A stretch of 41,685 bases of DNA from positions 1-41,685 of IMG/VR virus record IMGVR_UViG_3300005548_000005; one strand, written 5' to 3'. The translations under genes were made by a program, and so were the position numbers. The notes below the pieces were generated by a model. The model was not told where the DNA came from and did not search any database. It worked only from the letters and a program-made list of their open reading frames with translations. Shown in pieces: positions 19,282-34,917 of the stretch (position 1 is its first letter; each line of letters opens with the position of its first letter). This DNA is from a virus.

Positions 19282-19479
19282 ATGGACAAGGATCTGAAGA
19301 AGATCGTCAAGGCGCTCAAGGCCCAGGGCTACGAGACCGAGATGACCCGGAAGGGACACCTGATGGTGTACCGCGACGGTCACCTGGTCGCCGTTCTCCC
19401 CGGCAACGTGGGCGACTGGCGGGCCCTGAAGAACGCGATCGCTGCGCTCCGACGGGTCGGGTTCCGGTGGCCGCCCTAG
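19282..19479 (+). CDS. HicA-like toxin
   Basis: A 65-residue protein with the HicA dsRBD-like plan: N-terminal helix (LKKIVKALKAQGYE), then beta strands with the KGHLMVYRDGHLVAVLPG core, whose Gly-His pair matches the GSH active region of HicA mRNA interferases, then a C-terminal helix (ALKNAIAALRRVGF). ATG with perfect AGGAGGTGA. It would cut or bind translated mRNA. It is one of only six or so rightward genes and has its own promoter, typical of a self-contained module. Confidence 0.68.
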   Translation: MDKDLKKIVKALKAQGYETEMTRKGHLMVYRDGHLVAVLPGNVGDWRALKNAIAALRRVGFRWPP

Positions 19480-19491
19480 GCCGACGGACAA

Positions 19492-19550
19492 GAGGACCGG
19501 GGCGCGGAAATCGCCCCGGTCCTCGGGACCCAGTGTGACCCGAGGACCGG
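19492..19550 (+). promoter_or_regulatory. Mutually exclusive hairpins between toxin-like and HTH genes
   Basis: Arm 1 GAGGACCGGGGCG (19492-19504) pairs with arm 2 CGCCCCGGTCCTC (19512-19524), 13 perfect pairs. Most of arm 2 also pairs with arm 3: CCGGTCCTCGGG (19516-19527) with CCCGAGGACCGG (19539-19550), 12 perfect pairs. Both cannot form together. The SD of the HTH gene starts four bases after arm 3. A ribosome finishing the toxin-like gene would cover arm 1 and favour the 2:3 form. There is no T-tract, so translational control is more likely than termination. Confidence 0.6.
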
Positions 19551-19566: not shown

Positions 19567-20034
19567 ATGCAGATGTACCACGCGAACGTCGAGGTCGACG
19601 ACCGCACACCGATCACCCGCGACAACTCCACCGAGGTCGACGCCTGGATGGAGGTGCTGCGCCAGTACCACGGATCCCCGGGCACCAGCATCCGCGGGTT
19701 CCGTGAGGCCGGCCTGTACGTGCCCGCCGAGAACCTCGCCCAGGCGACGACGTCGGCGACCGCGATCGTGAGCTCGCTGTTCGGCGCCGAGGCGATCGCC
19801 ATCGAGATCATGACCGAGAAGGAGTTCGACACCCGCGAGGGCTGGATGCCGATGCCCGAGATCGTGTCGGTCAGCGAGGCCGCCGAGCTGCTCGGCGTCA
19901 CCCGGCAGGCGGTGCAGGACCGGATCCGGCGCGGCACGCTGCAGGCCGAGAAGGTCGGCGACACCTACGTGATCCCGCGCGGCCAGCTCCCGGCGCAGCT
20001 GCTCGACTCGAACCCGGAGCCCGCCGACAAGTGA
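19567..20034 (+). CDS. HTH protein, probable antitoxin partner of the HicA-like gene
   Basis: A 155-residue protein. Residues about 1-95 form an unrecognised alpha/beta domain (YHANVEVDDRTPITRDNS, then ATTSATAIVSSLFG). Residues about 98-145 are an excisionase/MerR-type HTH (EIVSVSEAAELLGVTRQAV, then RRGTLQAEKVGDTYVIPRGQL). AAAGGAAG SD. HicB antitoxins combine an RNase-H-like domain and a DNA-binding end; this has the same plan but the N-domain is not clearly HicB. It likely neutralises the toxin and represses the promoter. Pairing is inferred from operon structure. Confidence 0.6.
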   Translation: MQMYHANVEVDDRTPITRDNSTEVDAWMEVLRQYHGSPGTSIRGFREAGLYVPAENLAQATTSATAIVSSLFGAEAIAIEIMTEKEFDTREGWMPMPEIVSVSEAAELLGVTRQAVQDRIRRGTLQAEKVGDTYVIPRGQLPAQLLDSNPEPADK

Positions 20035-23475: not shown

Positions 23476-23846
23476 CACGCGCCCGCGCGCTCGTCGACGT
23501 ACCGGATCGGGACGTGGACCTTCTCGCCGAGCTCCTGGTGGTCGAGCCAGACCGCGAGGTATCCGGTGCTGGCGCTGTCGGGCGGCCAGTAGACGGTGGC
23601 TCGGTCGACCGGTGAGAAGGCCCGGCCCAGCCAGGCGATCGCGTCTCTGACGCCGGCACGCTCGGCGTACTGCTCGGTCCACCAGGTCTTCTCGTTGTTC
23701 GCGGCGATCAGGGCGCAGTGCCAGGGCTGCACCACTAGCGGGGGGTTACCGGACGGGTCGCCGATCTGGTCGCGTCGGGTGACGCGGATGTGAGCGGCGT
23801 ATGGGTCGGGTGTGACGTTGCCGGTCTGGGCGGGGATCTCGGTCAT
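23475..23846 (-). CDS. Hypothetical early protein
   Basis: A 123-residue mixed alpha/beta protein with tryptophan-rich core (PWHCALIAANNEKTWWTEQY) and a beta-rich end. ATG overlaps the ParB-like stop. I recognise no family. It sits between ParB-like and HerA-like genes in a coupled operon. Confidence 0.55.
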   Translation of the reverse strand: MTEIPAQTGNVTPDPYAAHIRVTRRDQIGDPSGNPPLVVQPWHCALIAANNEKTWWTEQYAERAGVRDAIAWLGRAFSPVDRATVYWPPDSASTGYLAVWLDHQELGEKVHVPIRYVDERAGA

Positions 23847-24886
23847 GCGGTTGCCTCGTCAGGCTCGATGTCAGGACCCGCGGACGAGGGACCGCTGGTG
23901 CGCGCCTCGTCCGGCTCGTCCGCGGGTGTCTGTGGGTGGCGCCGGCGCTCGAGCTTGGAGCGTTCGTCGGAGCGGATGCAGGCCTCCCAGCAGGAGCCGC
24001 AGCCGATGCCGCCGATTCGGCCGGCGGTCATCTTGGAGTGGCCCAGCTGGCGGCACAGGGTCTCGACGGCGGCCGCGAGCGGGTGGTCGAACGACAGGTG
24101 GGCGGCCGAGGACTTCCCCCAGGCGTTGGGCCGCTCCTTGCCGGAGTGGTGGCGTCCGAGCTGGGTGCCGCGGCCGATCGAGAGGGTGCCGTTGCGGATC
24201 GCGGCCTGCCGCTCCGGGGAGAGCTCGAGGAGCGCCAGGCGGCCGGAGACGTGGGACTGGGACTTCCCGACTCGGCGGGAGAGCTCGAGGTCGGAGATCT
24301 CCTCGCGGCCCTTGATCTTGGCCAGCGCCCGGGCCTCCTCGATCGGGTCGAGGTCCTCGCGCTGGGTGTTCTCCATGAACATGGCCACGAGGACGTCGTC
24401 GGCTCGGATCGCGGAGATGATCACCGGCACGGACTCGAGACCGGCCTGCAGGGCAGCGGCGCGGCGGCGGTGGCCCATGACGACCACCAGCTGGTCGCCG
24501 CGACGGCGGGCGACGATGGGCTGCAGCATCCCCATCCGACGGATCGAGTCCGCGAGCTCGGTGACGTCGCCGACCTGGTCGCGGACGTTGTCGGGGTCGG
24601 GGACTAGGCGGCGCAGCGGGACCTCGACGTACTCGTCGTCTTGGACCTGGCCGGTGTCGTGGGTGTGCTCGGTGGCCGCCTGGCTGCGGATCCGGGCTGC
24701 CGCGTCAGCCATGGCCTTCGAGCTGGGGAACCCGTTCGCGTCGGACAGGACGACGACCTCGTCGAAGGTGGCCCCGAACTCGGACGCGATCTGGGCGCGG
24801 GCCTCGCGTGGCCACCGGGCGTCCGCGAGGGCTTGCAGGATCTGGGCCTGGGTGCTCGGTGCGAGCTGGGCCCGGGTCGGGGTCAC
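23843..24886 (-). CDS. ParB-like protein (second copy)
   Basis: A 347-residue protein from a GTG overlapping the upstream stop; longer upstream frame overlaps a real gene and is not used. The ParB core has GHRRRAA (139-145) and ENTQREDLDPIEEA (172-185), the CTP-binding motifs, then an HTH (196-222; RRVGKSQSHVSGRLALLEL). The C-terminus has a Cys cluster (GIGCGSCWEAC) instead of a usual dimer domain. An N-terminal HTH-like region (TQAQILQAL) precedes. Likely binds a phage DNA site; no ParA partner is visible. Confidence 0.8.
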   Translation of the reverse strand: MTPTRAQLAPSTQAQILQALADARWPREARAQIASEFGATFDEVVVLSDANGFPSSKAMADAAARIRSQAATEHTHDTGQVQDDEYVEVPLRRLVPDPDNVRDQVGDVTELADSIRRMGMLQPIVARRRGDQLVVVMGHRRRAAALQAGLESVPVIISAIRADDVLVAMFMENTQREDLDPIEEARALAKIKGREEISDLELSRRVGKSQSHVSGRLALLELSPERQAAIRNGTLSIGRGTQLGRHHSGKERPNAWGKSSAAHLSFDHPLAAAVETLCRQLGHSKMTAGRIGGIGCGSCWEACIRSDERSKLERRRHPQTPADEPDEARTSGPSSAGPDIEPDEATA

Positions 24887-30122: not shown

Positions 30123-30628
30123 CAGCTCGCCTCCGACTCGAGGGAGGCCTGCCAGGCGAACGCGTCACCCAGCGGCGTGGAGGGGGCGATGTCGTCGCGC
30201 CAGTCGCAGTACGTCGTCCGGGCGCCGGTGCTGGTCCACAGCCAGGGGATGCCGGCGGTCTCGAGGAAGTCGGTGAGCCGGACGACCAGCCAGGCATGGA
30301 GGTCGATCACCGACGGCGACATCGGCAGGTGCCGGTACGGGGTGTCGAGGGTGATCAACGTGTACGCCGGCACACAGGACGGCAGGTGGACGAAGTCGCC
30401 GGGCGGGATGACCTGGCCGTTGGCGTTGATCTCGACGACGCTGGCCAGCAGGCCCTGGCCGCGGCCCGTGGCGTAGCTGACCCGGATCGGGCTGCCGTCG
30501 GCGTCGAAGGTGACGGCCTGGTCGATCTGGACCTCGGTGACGTCGGCGAGCACCATCCGCACCGCCGGCCCGAACAGGGCCTGCTGGGGGAGCGGCTTCA
30601 GTGCGGCGATCACCGTCGACGTCGTCAC
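30122..30628 (-). CDS. Hypothetical early protein
   Basis: A 168-residue alpha/beta protein. It contains FDADGSPIRVSYATGRGQG and DLHAWLVVRLTDFLETAGIPWLWTSTG, split over helix and strand. GTG in a GTGA overlap with the ParB-like gene. No family recognised. Coupling suggests it is made with ParB. Confidence 0.52.
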   Translation of the reverse strand: MTTSTVIAALKPLPQQALFGPAVRMVLADVTEVQIDQAVTFDADGSPIRVSYATGRGQGLLASVVEINANGQVIPPGDFVHLPSCVPAYTLITLDTPYRHLPMSPSVIDLHAWLVVRLTDFLETAGIPWLWTSTGARTTYCDWRDDIAPSTPLGDAFAWQASLESEAS

Positions 30629-32070
30629 GACGCCGCCTCCTCGGCGTCGGTGTCCGCGGCCTTCGGCTCGGCCACGGAGAGGGTTGCCTCCGCGCTGTCA
30701 CGGATCCCGATGTCCTGGGTGGTGAACGGATGTCCGAGCTGCTCGAGGAACCCGAAGTAGCGGGTGGTGAGGGTGGCGCCGACCTGGCTCTGGTCGTCCT
30801 GGCTTTCGGTGAGCTGCAGGAGCACCACCATCAGCAGCCGCACCAGCCGCCAGCCAGGCATCGTCGTGTAGGTGTCGAGGAAGGCCAGGTGCTTGGCGTC
30901 CTCCTCGTCATCCCAGTAGCCGAACCGGAACCGGTCGGCTACGTCGACGCCGGCGACATCGAAGTACAGGGCGGGGGCGTCGCCAGCTTCGCCGAAGATC
31001 CAGTCGGCCGCCGGCGGGAGCACGACGCGCAGCTGGTCGACCAGGAAGTCGGGGACCATGGCGCCCTCGGGGACCAGGTCGAGGACGGTCTGGGCGCGCA
31101 GGTTCTTGGCGATCGCCTTCTGCTCGCGCTCGGTCTCCCACATGGCTCGCCGCTCCGCGTCGGCCTGCTCGCGCTCGCGGTCGGCCTTGGACTTCTTGGT
31201 GGCGTGGATGCTGGTCGCGGTGCAGACGAGCGTGATCGTGTGGGTGCCGTCCCAGTCCTTGCTGATGACGTAGCCCAGGCAGCCGTCGTGCTCGCTGCGG
31301 GCGTCGTCGTAGGCGAGGTCGGCGTAGGAGGTGAGCCGGCCGAGCTGGTCGTCCTTGCGCTGCGCTTCCCAGATGTCGCGGGCGCCCTGCATGTCGTACT
31401 CGGTGACGCCGTCCTTGGTGAGGCGACCGATGACCTGGTCGTTGTGCTCACGGTTGGCCCGGATCCGCTTCTGCCTGTCGACCTCGCCGCGGAACGAGGG
31501 ACTGCCGGCGGCCTTGACCAGCGCGGTCTGTGCCTTGGGGTCGTCCTCGAAGGCGACGATCTCGAGGGCATCGCCGATGGTGAGCTGGCCGACGTGGATC
31601 GAGTCGCGGGTCTTCTTCGAGAGCTTGAGCAGCTTGAGGCGCTCGCGGATCGTGGAGACGGGCCGACCGGTCATCTTCGCGATGTCGCGCTGGGTGTGCT
31701 TCAGGTCGCGCAGCTGCTCGAAGGCCTCGGCCTCCTCCATCGGGGACAGGTCGACTCGGTGGACGTTCTCGACGACAGCGGCCTCGATCTGCTGGGCGTC
31801 GGTGGTCAGGTCAGTGCGGACGATCGCCGGCGTCGTCTTCTTCCGGGCCTTCTTCAGGCCGTCGAGTCGACGGTGTCCGGCGATGACGACGTACCCGCCG
31901 TCGGCTGCTGGGGCGACCACGATCGGCTGGATCAGACCCTGCCCCTTGATCGAGGCGACCATCTCGTCGTCGGCGACGACCTTGCGGCGTGGGTTGGCGG
32001 GATGGGGCTTGATGGTCTTGACCTCGAGCGCGGGCTCGAAGCTGGTGGTGGTGTCGGTGCTACTGGGCAT
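30625..32070 (-). CDS. ParB-like protein (first copy)
   Basis: A 481-residue protein with the ParB/Srx core: NPRR (26-29), GHRRLDGL (65-72), ENVHRVDLSPMEEA (101-114), then an HTH (124-150; DIAKMTGRPVSTIRERLKLLKL). The long C-terminal half (190-481) has a charged coiled stretch (KKSKADREREQADAERRA) and no known domain. ATG with GAGGT SD. ParB proteins are CTP switches that load at parS; without ParA this one may act in regulation or phage genome organisation. Confidence 0.82.
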   Translation of the reverse strand: MPSSTDTTTSFEPALEVKTIKPHPANPRRKVVADDEMVASIKGQGLIQPIVVAPAADGGYVVIAGHRRLDGLKKARKKTTPAIVRTDLTTDAQQIEAAVVENVHRVDLSPMEEAEAFEQLRDLKHTQRDIAKMTGRPVSTIRERLKLLKLSKKTRDSIHVGQLTIGDALEIVAFEDDPKAQTALVKAAGSPSFRGEVDRQKRIRANREHNDQVIGRLTKDGVTEYDMQGARDIWEAQRKDDQLGRLTSYADLAYDDARSEHDGCLGYVISKDWDGTHTITLVCTATSIHATKKSKADREREQADAERRAMWETEREQKAIAKNLRAQTVLDLVPEGAMVPDFLVDQLRVVLPPAADWIFGEAGDAPALYFDVAGVDVADRFRFGYWDDEEDAKHLAFLDTYTTMPGWRLVRLLMVVLLQLTESQDDQSQVGATLTTRYFGFLEQLGHPFTTQDIGIRDSAEATLSVAEPKAADTDAEEAAS

Positions 32071-32837: not shown

Positions 32838-33001
32838 GGCTGACCGCCCGTCGTGGCCGGGGCCTGCTGCATGGTGTCGCCGAGGTGGTGCAGGCCGGTG
32901 GCCATGTCGTGGAGGACGAGCACGATCGCCAGCACGCACAGGAGACCGAGCGCGGTGGCCATCACCATCGAGGCCCGGGAGTCACCGCGGCGGGCGGCCA
33001 T
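32834..33001 (-). CDS. Small single-pass membrane protein
   Basis: A 55-residue protein with one hydrophobic helix (MVMATALGLLCVLAIVLVLH) after a short basic start. ATG in an ATGA overlap with the HTH gene. Second gene of the early unit, so expressed early; membrane exclusion is possible but unproven. Confidence 0.55.
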   Translation of the reverse strand: MAARRGDSRASMVMATALGLLCVLAIVLVLHDMATGLHHLGDTMQQAPATTGGQP

Positions 33002-33204
33002 CACGTACCACGCTCGATGCGCTCGACGTCCTCGAGGCGGTACCGGCGGTGACCCGAGGGGAGCTTGACCACGGGGAGGCGCCCGTCCCAGGTGCGCAGC
33101 GTCGAGGGGGAGATCCCGAGCCGACGGGCGACCTCGCGAGGAGTCAGCAGCGGCCGCGGCTCTGGTGCGGTAACTGCGGATCCATGCGATTTTCGCGGGC
33201 TCAT
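33001..33204 (-). CDS. MerR-type HTH protein, first early gene (Xis/Cro-like candidate)
   Basis: A 67-residue protein: LLTPREVARRLGISPSTLRTWDG is the HTH, then LPVVKLPSGHRRYRLEDVERI, the wing and a helix, as in excisionases and BldC-like regulators. It is transcribed divergently from the repressor, the place of Cro and Xis in similar phages. Its ATG has no SD and lies just after a TACGGT -10, so the mRNA is probably near leaderless. Confidence 0.72.
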   Translation of the reverse strand: MSPRKSHGSAVTAPEPRPLLTPREVARRLGISPSTLRTWDGRLPVVKLPSGHRRYRLEDVERIERGT

Positions 33205-33302: not shown

Positions 33303-33308
33303 TACAGT
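33303..33308 (+). promoter_or_regulatory. -10 of repressor promoter, leaderless mRNA likely
   Basis: TACAGT ends six bases before the repressor ATG, which puts +1 on the A of the ATG. There is no SD upstream. Leaderless mRNAs are common in actinobacteria and are typical of phage repressors. The -35 is not clear. Confidence 0.6.
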
Positions 33309-33314
33309 GTGGTC

Positions 33315-33794
33315 ATGACGACTGAGGGCGCTCCGGCGGTACCGACCGCCGATGCGATCGTGGGCGAGAAGGTCTTCCACTGGATGTGGCGGATGAAGAT
33401 CTCGCAGACCGAGATGGCGAGGCACCTCGGGATCTCGCAGACCAATGTCAGCCGCCGACTTCGCGGCGAGACCGGCTGGACGATCGACGACATCATCACC
33501 GCGGCCCGTGTCCTACGGCTGTCGCCGGGCGACCTGCTCCCGGGCGACGACTACGAGGGTCGTCCGGGTGGTGGTGGTACTCAGTACGCCATCAGGGACT
33601 CGAACCCCGAACCCGCTGATTACGGATCAGCGGACGCCACGATCCTGCAGATGCCGCGTCGCCCGCGGCCGATCAGCGGCGAGCGGGCAGCGTCCACACA
33701 GACTGGCTGGGGGGCCACTGTGGTCCGCCTCGAGGCACGTTCCTCGAGGCGGACCACCACTTCTTCGGCCTGGTGCGACCAGGCCAGCTCGTGA
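33315..33794 (+). CDS. Immunity repressor, virus form (attP within gene)
   Basis: A 159-residue protein. Residues about 18-76 are a Cro/CI-type HTH (KISQTEMARHLGISQTNVSR, then TIDDIITAARVLRLSPGDLL). From residue 92 the reading frame runs through a tRNA-like attP core (AIRDSNPEPAD), so the last 57 residues (103-159) come from phage DNA beyond the core. Integration would replace that tail with host sequence, here probably an immediate stop after codon 102. The short form would be the active prophage repressor. No -LAA-like tag is visible on the virus form. Confidence 0.82.
   Translation: MTTEGAPAVPTADAIVGEKVFHWMWRMKISQTEMARHLGISQTNVSRRLRGETGWTIDDIITAARVLRLSPGDLLPGDDYEGRPGGGGTQYAIRDSNPEPADYGSADATILQMPRRPRPISGERAASTQTGWGATVVRLEARSSRRTTTSSAWCDQASS
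33587..33633 (+). other. attP core (tRNA 3'-half match) inside the repressor gene
   Basis: Reverse-complemented, 33587-33622 reads as a tRNA from position 37 to 71: anticodon-stem 3' arm TCAGC, variable loop GGGTT, T-arm CGGGG-TTCGAGT-CCCTG with correct pairing, and acceptor 3' strand ATGGCG. The anticodon loop itself is diverged (C at position 33), so it is not a working tRNA. CCGCTGAT and ATCAGCGG (33613-33633) form an inverted pair around TACGG, a plausible integrase core site. From memory it best fits actinobacterial tRNA-Lys. Confidence 0.78.
33720..33757 (+). terminator. Perfect 16-bp hairpin in the repressor tail
   Basis: Stem 33720-33735 pairs without mismatch to 33742-33757 around a six-base loop (cacgtt). 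The stem contains CTCGAGG/CCTCGAG. It is followed by CCACTTCTT, only partly T-rich. It lies beyond the attP core, between the truncated repressor and int, so it could stop repressor transcripts before int, or be an integrase/host-factor site. Confidence 0.55.
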
Positions 33795-33832: not shown

Positions 33833-34024
33833 ATGACCGCCACCGCCCTCCGCCTGATCGACACCACCGCCACCACCCCCGAGCACGAGCAGACTCCCGT
33901 CGTCGACGCCGGTGTCGCGGCCGGCCTGATCCACACCTGGGCGGCGGTGCAGACCACGTTGCTCGAGCGGCAGATCCGCCGGTCCGGTGCGCTGCAGCGG
34001 TACGTCCGCGGCTCGGTGAAGTGA
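33833..34024 (+). CDS. Small protein between repressor and integrase
   Basis: A 63-residue protein from ATG with AGGAG eight bases upstream. The C-terminal half is helical and basic (AGLIHTWAAVQTTLLERQIRRSG). No family recognised. Its position between repressor and int suggests a lysogeny function, such as an integration co-factor. Confidence 0.55.
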   Translation: MTATALRLIDTTATTPEHEQTPVVDAGVAAGLIHTWAAVQTTLLERQIRRSGALQRYVRGSVK

Positions 34025-34098: not shown

Positions 34099-34917
34099 AT
34101 GAACTCGACGGATCGGGCCGTTGAGAGCTGGGCCAGCTGGATGCGTGCCGCGGGGCGAGCCCCCGGCACGATCGCGTTACGAACGGGGCACGTCCGCAAG
34201 GTCTTCCGGGACCTGGGCGTGCAGCAGCTCAACGACGTCACGACCGAGCAGCTGGTCGAGTTCTTGGCCACGCAGCGATGGCGGCCGAACACGCGCCGCT
34301 CCTACCGGGCTTCCCTGCGGGTCTTCTACGACTGGGCCCGAGCCGCCGGCTACGTCGAGGCCTCGCCGGTCGAGCGGGTGCCGGCCCCGAAGATCCCGCG
34401 ATCGCGGCCGCGGCCGCTGCCCGAGGACAACTACCGGCTCGCGCTGCAGGTCGCCCGGTACGAGCCGGCGCTGCGGATCGCGATCCGCCTCGGTGGGCAG
34501 TGCGGTCTACGGCGCGCGGAGCTCTCCCGGGTCCACCGCGACGACGTCTTCGAGGACCTGATCGGGCATGCGCTGCGGGTGGTCGGGAAGGGGGGCCACG
34601 AACGGCTCGTGCCGCTGCCCGAGGACCTGGCCCACGATCTGCTCGCGCGGCCCCAGGGTTGGCTGTTCCCGTCGCCGCGGCTCCACGGTCGGCCGGCGAC
34701 ACCGCAGGCCGTGGGGCGGTGGATCTCGTCGCTCCTGGGGCCCGGGTTCACCACCCACTCGCTGCGGCACCGGTGCGGGACGATGGCGCTCGAGCACAAC
34801 GGCGGGAACCTCCGCGCTGTCCAGGAGCTCCTCGGCCACGCGAAGCCCGAGACCACTGCGATCTACACCCTGGTCCGGGAGGAGACGATCCGCGCCGCCA
34901 TGGAAGGTGCGGCTTGA
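34099..34917 (+). CDS. int: Tyrosine integrase
   Basis: A 272-residue protein. Residues about 5-92 are the SAM-like core-binding domain. The catalytic domain carries Arg138 (GLRRAEL), Lys164 (VGKGGHERLVPL), His220 and Arg223 (HSLR), His247 (LLGHAKPETT) and nucleophile Tyr256. There is no N-terminal arm-binding domain, so it is XerC-sized. It ends -MEGAA, a small-residue end like ssrA-type tags. It would recombine attP, 0.5 kb upstream, with a host tRNA gene. Confidence 0.93.
   Translation: MNSTDRAVESWASWMRAAGRAPGTIALRTGHVRKVFRDLGVQQLNDVTTEQLVEFLATQRWRPNTRRSYRASLRVFYDWARAAGYVEASPVERVPAPKIPRSRPRPLPEDNYRLALQVARYEPALRIAIRLGGQCGLRRAELSRVHRDDVFEDLIGHALRVVGKGGHERLVPLPEDLAHDLLARPQGWLFPSPRLHGRPATPQAVGRWISSLLGPGFTTHSLRHRCGTMALEHNGGNLRAVQELLGHAKPETTAIYTLVREETIRAAMEGAA

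What the first reader, a model, noticed from the sequence alone, without database searches (positions are those of the whole stretch)
33612..33624. Integration into a tRNA-Lys gene would create a stop codon at the exact core border
Phage frame reads GCT GAT TAC GGA. In a tRNA-Lys gene as I recall it for actinobacteria (anticodon arm ...CTTAATCAGC), the reverse complement reads GCT GAT TAA. The hybrid gene would therefore end right after codon 102. If the target were another tRNA, for example tRNA-Thr(CGU), the frame would run on into host sequence.
Basis: inference. Interest (0 to 1): 0.75.

Follow-up and report, generated by a model that had tools for sequence, protein, structure and literature searches.

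The report
Host tRNA ends phage repressor gene
When this bacterial virus inserts into a lysine tRNA gene, the host's tRNA sequence very probably adds a stop codon exactly at the join and shortens the virus's repressor; this trick is known from related viruses, and this one differs in the tail that is cut off.

Summary
The repressor gene (33315-33794, +) runs through a 36-base attP core (33587-33622) that is antisense to the 3' half of a tRNA. The core's exact 35-base form occurs 126 times in the 117 bacterial stretches fetched; all 123 typed genes are tRNA-Lys(CTT), and 125 of 126 copies put TAA where the phage has TAC. Joining window and host flanks in silico restores tRNA-Lys and gives a 102-residue repressor with 16 of 16 hosts tried. 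Nature has done it too: a prophage in the genus of a Nocardioides genome carries a 40%-identical repressor and 47%-identical integrase, sits in tRNA-Lys(CTT) and ends ...RDSNPEPAD-TAA. The core's extra matching bases point to Nocardioides as host.

The mechanism, integration-dependent immunity, is known; the same junction stop is described for mycobacteriophage BPs (PMC9262239, section read). What differs: the viral tail lacks the usual ...AA degradation end. It is 57 codons long, ends ...QASS and crosses a strong hairpin. Nine related Nocardioides-group tails also mostly lack AA (1 of 9), whereas 18 of 18 Gordonia, Mycobacterium and unassigned viral tails read here have it.

The parts
33315..33794 (+). 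Repressor gene, viral form, 159 aa; residues 1-102 are the predicted prophage form
   Evidence: Pfam HTH_26 1e-7 and HTH_3 1.3e-6; PHROG 2328 transcriptional repressor 3.5e-18 over residues 6-111
33587..33622 (-). attP common core, 36 bases, 3' half of tRNA-Lys(CTT) read antisense to the repressor
33584..33586 (-). Three more bases shared only with Nocardioides-type tRNA-Lys (T at position 72), total 39; one host 40
   Evidence: titles
33621..33623 (+). Border codon: TAC (Tyr) in the phage, TAA in attL; third base is the first non-core base
33613..33633 (.). Inverted repeat that keeps the whole tRNA anticodon stem around a changed loop; possible integrase core-type sites (inference)
33621..33791 (+). 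57-codon tail present only in the viral form, ends ...CDQASS (no AA)
33720..33757 (+). 16-bp perfect stem, 6-nt loop hairpin inside the tail; terminator-like without T-run (function inferred)
   Evidence: z -5.1 for 33700-33790; no T-tailed terminator
33767..33785 (+). Second hairpin, 8-bp stem, inside the tail
33833..34024 (+). Small ORF of 63 aa between repressor and integrase, no family
34099..34917 (+). Tyrosine integrase, 272 aa, C-terminus ...MEGAA
   Evidence: Pfam Phage_integrase 2.8e-16; PHROG 1 1.1e-48
33001..33204 (-). Divergent small HTH protein (MerR/excisionase-like), place of a Cro-like gene
33584..33659 (-). ARAGORN 'tRNA-Thr(cgt)': attP core plus fortuitous 5' half, not a real tRNA
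   Evidence: no Rfam tRNA hit

Best explanation
The window carries an integration-dependent immunity cassette, or something that works like one. The phage's integrase recombines a 36-40 base attP core inside the repressor gene with a host tRNA-Lys(CTT) gene, probably in a Nocardioides. The host side of the junction rebuilds the tRNA. Because the repressor reads the tRNA antisense, the host anticodon loop turns the border codon TAC into TAA, so the prophage makes a 102-residue repressor. Shown computationally: the core, the target tRNA, the restored tRNA, the stop, and the same event in natural prophages. Inferred: that the short form is the stable, active repressor and that the 57-residue viral tail keeps the viral form inactive, as measured by others for BPs. 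How the tail does so here is uncertain, since it lacks the usual AA end.
For: Core and frame. Host gene and TAA: 123 of 123 typed genes tRNA-Lys(ctt), TAA at 125 of 126 cores. In-silico attL: tRNA-Lys(ctt) restored and 102 aa in 16 of 16. Natural prophage G141: repressor homolog (40%), integrase 47% identical, both junction cores 15.7 kb apart, tRNA-Lys(ctt) at one end...RYAIRDSNPEPAD-TAA, while the phage-side core reads on with TCA. G194 and G026: same at tRNA-Asn(GTT), phage TAC versus host TAA. G062 and G161: tRNA-Arg(ACG), host TAG. Seven IMG/VR records carry repressor ORFs ending ...DSNPEPAD-TAA in the same frame: L129, L132, L133, L134, L172, L180, L192; 6 of these 7 have HTH-type Pfam hits, two of them below the curated cut-off, and L134 has none. 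Gordonia cluster CW phages: same attP within repressor, tRNA-Lys (PMC5559632, passages).
Against: No lysogen of this very phage was found, and no other viral contig holds its tail sequence (0 hits). The viral repressor ends QASS, not AA. A strong hairpin and a small ORF lie between repressor and integrase, unlike the simple rep-int operon. The host genus is inferred from 3-4 bases and from homologous prophages, not from a host link.
Confidence: 0.88

Rival explanations
1. The target is another tRNA, for example tRNA-Thr(CGU), and the hybrid frame runs on into host DNA.
Against: All 123 typed host genes with the core are Lys(ctt); the homologous prophage G141 sits in tRNA-Lys(ctt); Rfam finds no tRNA at the phage site.
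Confidence: 0.02
2. The stop forms as said but has no switching role: the 159-residue form is as stable and active as the 102-residue form, so immunity does not depend on integration.
For: The window repressor ends QASS, not AA; for BPs both forms bind DNA similarly (PMC4557955, passages).
Against: The arrangement recurs with unrelated repressors and three tRNA targets; the integrase still ends GAA; the tails of nine relatives all end in A or S.
Confidence: 0.2
3. The window's tail is a lost-stop allele: the original tail ended after ...ISGERAAS (25 codons past the core, as long as in relatives) and now runs on 32 codons into the hairpin region.
For: Tails of the three strong homologs G141, G194 and G026 end 25-27 codons past the core in ..VAS..RAS and ..RAS; the window has ..RAAS at codon 25; strong hairpins follow, where a terminator would stand.
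Against: Relative G161 has a tail of over 60 codons and ends SA; no second copy of the window tail exists to compare.
Confidence: 0.25
4. Non-stop switch: transcription of the viral gene ends at the hairpin before any stop codon, so tmRNA tags and destroys the viral repressor, and the host TAA rescues it after integration.
For: No stop in any forward frame between core and hairpin end; very strong hairpin; host tmRNA tags end ALAA.
Against: All three frames are open in 744 of 5000 shuffles and the one frame in 2426 of 5000, so openness is unremarkable; the three strong homologs lack such a hairpin within 250 nt past the core; no T-run terminator.
Confidence: 0.06

Closest known systems
Integration-dependent immunity of mycobacteriophage BPs (tRNA-Arg)
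   Same: attP inside the repressor gene; base next to the core turns the third base of a codon into a stop at attL (Cys to TGA there, Tyr to TAA here); tRNA rebuilt (PMC9262239 section 9; PMC4557955 passages)
   Different: Other tRNA, other codon; BPs viral tail is 33 residues with an ssrA-like end, here 57 residues ending QASS
Gordonia cluster CW phages (GMA5, GRU3, McGonagall) and their relatives SallySpecial, Emperor, EricDab
   Same: Same tRNA-Lys core in the repressor, same frame, same ...CAIRDSNPEPAD peptide, related integrases 41-48% identical; attP in the repressor at tRNA-Lys noted in PMC5559632 for McGonagall, Jeanie, GMA5 and GRU3
   Different: 15-18 kb genomes versus a 41.7-kb record; viral tails 8-24 codons, all ending AA
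About 16-kb Nocardioides-group prophages G141, G194, G026 (found here)
   Same: Homologous repressor and integrase, host stop from the antisense anticodon loop, viral tails not ending AA
   Different: G194 and G026 use tRNA-Asn; tails 25-27 codons without the hairpin

Membership tests
Integration-dependent immunity system (features as listed in PMC9262239 and PMC9934374) | attP core lies inside the repressor reading frame | tested here: met
Integration-dependent immunity system (features as listed in PMC9262239 and PMC9934374) | attB overlaps a host tRNA gene that is rebuilt | tested here: met
   tRNA-Lys(ctt) in in-silico attL with 16 of 16 hosts
Integration-dependent immunity system (features as listed in PMC9262239 and PMC9934374) | Prophage repressor shortened by a stop from bacterial sequence at or near attL | tested here: met
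   natural homolog
[quoted passage not shown]
   ends ...CDQASS; 1 of 9 Nocardioides-group relatives has AA
[quoted passage not shown]
   ...MEGAA
Integration-dependent immunity system (features as listed in PMC9262239 and PMC9934374) | Repressor and integrase cotranscribed | tested here: inconclusive
   Same strand, but hairpins and a 63-aa ORF lie between
Integration-dependent immunity system (features as listed in PMC9262239 and PMC9934374) | Long form unstable or inactive, short form confers immunity | not testable with these tools
   needs lysogens and protein half-life
Tyrosine integrase | Phage_integrase catalytic domain | tested here: met
   Pfam PF00589 2.8e-16
tRNA-Thr(CGU) gene in the window | Recognised tRNA structure | tested here: not met
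   ARAGORN only; no Rfam tRNA at E up to 1; position 33 is C

The most novel reading that the evidence does not exclude
In the Nocardioides branch of these phages the viral repressor is not disabled by an ssrA-like AA end. It uses a different C-terminal signal of small residues (AS, VS, SA, SS) or, in this phage, a tail that runs through a terminator-like hairpin, so that an unintegrated genome makes a non-stop or differently marked repressor which only the host's antisense tRNA stop codon can rescue.
Probability: 0.15. Interest if true: 0.65.

Novelty: new variant of a known kind. Interest (0 to 1): 0.4.

Why it matters
The lysis-lysogeny decision of such phages hangs on a single host base read antisense from a tRNA anticodon loop. 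Finding the same stop at tRNA-Lys, tRNA-Asn and tRNA-Arg(ACG) next to related integrases suggests a rule for which tRNA genes can serve such switches. The AA-less tails suggest that the viral repressor's inactivation signal can differ between host genera, which can be tested.

Tried and rejected
The tRNA-Thr target was rejected. The non-stop idea was weakened by its own control and by the lack of such hairpins in the three strong homologs. I first took the window tail as a unique outlier against 12 of 12 AA ends in the tRNA-Lys set; the Nocardioides prophages showed that AA-less ends are common there. No close copy of the cassette in viral contigs: the integrase patterns gave none, the repressor search gave one weak HTH relative, the tail 26-mer none. 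Integrase hits in the first 14 Nocardioides-titled genomes were weak (best 1.4e-16) and not followed. My simple codon-usage gene caller missed the repressor and chose an antisense ORF, so it was used only for neighbours and base rates. Broussard et al. 2013, the primary paper on the mechanism, is not held, so its content is taken from reviews and later papers. A library search for Nocardioides with integration-dependent, repressor and prophage gave 0 papers.

Full report
What is there. The window is an IMG/VR virus record of 41,685 bases. At 33315-33794 (+) lies a 159-codon gene with a Cro/C1-type HTH (Pfam HTH_26 1e-7, HTH_3 1.3e-6; PHROG 2328 transcriptional repressor 3.5e-18). Downstream on the same strand are a 63-codon ORF and a tyrosine integrase, 34099-34917 (Pfam 2.8e-16). 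Upstream and divergent is a small MerR/excisionase-like HTH gene (33001-33204). The frame around the finding reads GAA CCC GCT GAT TAC GGA, and GAT is codon 102.

The core and its target. The antisense of 33587-33622 is the 3' half of a tRNA gene. They hold 126 copies: 123 typed as tRNA-Lys(ctt), one cut by a contig edge (L032), two without a tRNA 5' half (L015, L042). In 125 of 126 the base beyond the shared T is T on the tRNA strand, which makes GAT TAA in the repressor frame; L015 is the exception and not a tRNA gene. Identity with hosts ends at that base: 36 bases with ordinary hosts, 39-40 with the 13 tRNA genes that have T at position 72, all 13 in records titled Nocardioides (one Nocardioides, L072, has C). 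Joining window and host flanks in silico for 16 chosen hosts (those 13 plus L060, L072, L114) gave tRNA-Lys(ctt) and a 102-residue repressor ending ...AIRDSNPEPAD in 16 of 16.

Chance. The antisense core has three frames. By reading, one has TGA within the core, one stops at the border, and one stops 9 codons on inside the tRNA. A stop at the border is therefore about one in two for any frame open across the core, and the finding's strength lies in the verified target, not in rarity. Among viral-form repressors with a tRNA-Lys-type core (ORF of at least 70 codons across the core, no tRNA 5' half), 12 distinct ones besides the window use this frame; Gordonia phage Coeur uses frame 0 with an altered core. 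These counts leave out three duplicate records (L161, L181, L193) and one cut at the core (L224).

Natural integrated forms. Seven IMG/VR records hold ORFs that end ...DSNPEPAD-TAA in this frame (L129, L132, L133, L134, L172, L180, L192). Six of seven have HTH-type Pfam hits, two of them (L132, L133) below the curated cut-offs; L134 has none. Only L133 and L180 extend far enough for ARAGORN to see tRNA-Lys(ctt); the other five records end at the TAA. The decisive case is genome G141, drawn from the genus of the genome that holds L013 (title: Nocardioides sp. URHA0032). It has a repressor 40% identical to the window's over residues 7-113 and an integrase 47% identical, in a prophage bounded by two copies of the core at 693343 and 709069. 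The repressor end lies in tRNA-Lys(ctt) and stops at TAA; the other end carries the phage side of the core with TCA in place of TAA. G194 and G026 show the same with tRNA-Asn(gtt): host TAA, phage TAC. G062 and G161 use tRNA-Arg(acg), where the host antisense loop gives TAG one codon later. By tRNA numbering (my inference), TAA comes from positions 37-36-35 in Lys and Asn, and TAG from 34-33-32 in Arg(ACG).

Known mechanism. In mycobacteriophages BPs and relatives attP lies in the repressor gene, the viral repressor (136 residues in BPs) is degraded through an ssrA-like end, and the prophage form (103) is stable and active (PMC4557955, abstract and passages). The review PMC9262239 (section 9 read) says that at BPs attL the bacterial base next to the core turns the third base of a Cys codon into TGA. 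PMC9934374 (passages) lists a stop introduced by bacterial sequence at or near attL as a key feature. PMC5559632 (passages) reports the 37-bp attP of McGonagall, Jeanie, GMA5 and GRU3 at tRNA-Lys. The finding is therefore a new case of a described trick.

What differs. The repressor's viral tail after the core has 57 codons and ends CDQASS. Viral tails of the 12 tRNA-Lys-type relatives, Coeur, Pipp, Bunker, Dogfish, IdentityCrisis and Phrann all end AA: 18 of 18. In the Nocardioides-genus set, tails were read upstream of P0002-like integrases. Of 27 loci, 9 had a core with a tail in the matching frame: VAS, ESA, ASA, VVS, LVA, RAA, RAS, RRA, RAS. One of 9 ends AA; 9 of 9 end in A or S. For five (G141, G161, G062, G026, G194) the frame is confirmed by the integrated repressor at the other end; for four (G197, G204, G158, G133) it is assumed. 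Base rates for a last residue A or S are 21 of 63 window genes and 44 of 196 long ORFs in the fetched Nocardioides regions. Host ssrA tags end ALAA in all 31 Nocardioides-genus loci typed and in 4 Gordonia. So AA-less ends look like a trait of this branch, with unknown meaning. In the window the tail also passes a 16-bp hairpin (33720-33757) and a second one (33767-33785), z -5.1 for the stretch. The absence of stops before the hairpin is not significant (744 of 5000 shuffles open in all three frames).

Verdict. Observation and interpretation are confirmed. Under the strict feature list it fails one point (the repressor's AA end), so I file it as working like an integration-dependent immunity system, in a variant branch, and not as a plain member.

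Noticed in passing
window 19567-20034 (+): An HTH protein (P0005) ends ...LLDSNPEPADK: the same 8-residue peptide DSNPEPAD as the tRNA-derived tail of the repressor, with four base differences that leave the amino acids unchanged. The four best homologs, in Nocardioides-genus genomes (L242-L245), lack it. Chance match or old copy unclear.
   Followed up: partly
L343, L345, L346, L348 and the five prophages G141, G194, G026, G062, G161: Viral repressor tails in this branch end in small residues other than AA, 8 of 9, while the hosts' own ssrA tags end ALAA.
   Followed up: partly
G141, G194, G026, G062, G161: Host stop arises from the antisense anticodon loop at Lys(CTT), Asn(GTT) (TAA) and Arg(ACG) (TAG): possible rule for which tRNA genes such phages can use.
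   Followed up: partly
L002 1463-1494, L005 2464-2495, L006 2463-2496, L009 2111-2142, L010 2463-2494: Small Gordonia phages carry a 14-15 bp hairpin just before the core inside the repressor gene; after integration it would lie just 3' of the rebuilt tRNA, so it may serve as its terminator.
   Followed up: no
L006 2505-2616: Phage GRU3 has two tandem copies of the attP core 77 bases apart.
   Followed up: no
L009 2156-2190: Phage Coeur reads the core in a different frame and has an altered base that removes the TGA inside the core.
   Followed up: no
window 23843-24886 and 30625-32070 (-): Two different ParB-domain proteins in one phage.
   Followed up: no
window 19282-19479 (+): Small ORF that looks HicA-like to me (recalled; no Pfam hit), upstream of P0005 and followed by a 13-bp hairpin at 19492-19524.
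   Followed up: no
window 33303-33308: TACAGT, a -10-like hexamer, ends 6 bases before the repressor ATG: possible leaderless transcript; the promoter scan reported no site.
   Followed up: no
L348: An intact-looking tRNA-Asn antisense copy stands 260 bases before a second core with a phage tail, upstream of an integrase in G133.
   Followed up: no
window 33719-33787 (-): Sub-threshold Rfam hit to sodF sRNA (31.2 bits against 46 needed, E 0.025) on the hairpin region, probably just the hairpins.
   Followed up: no
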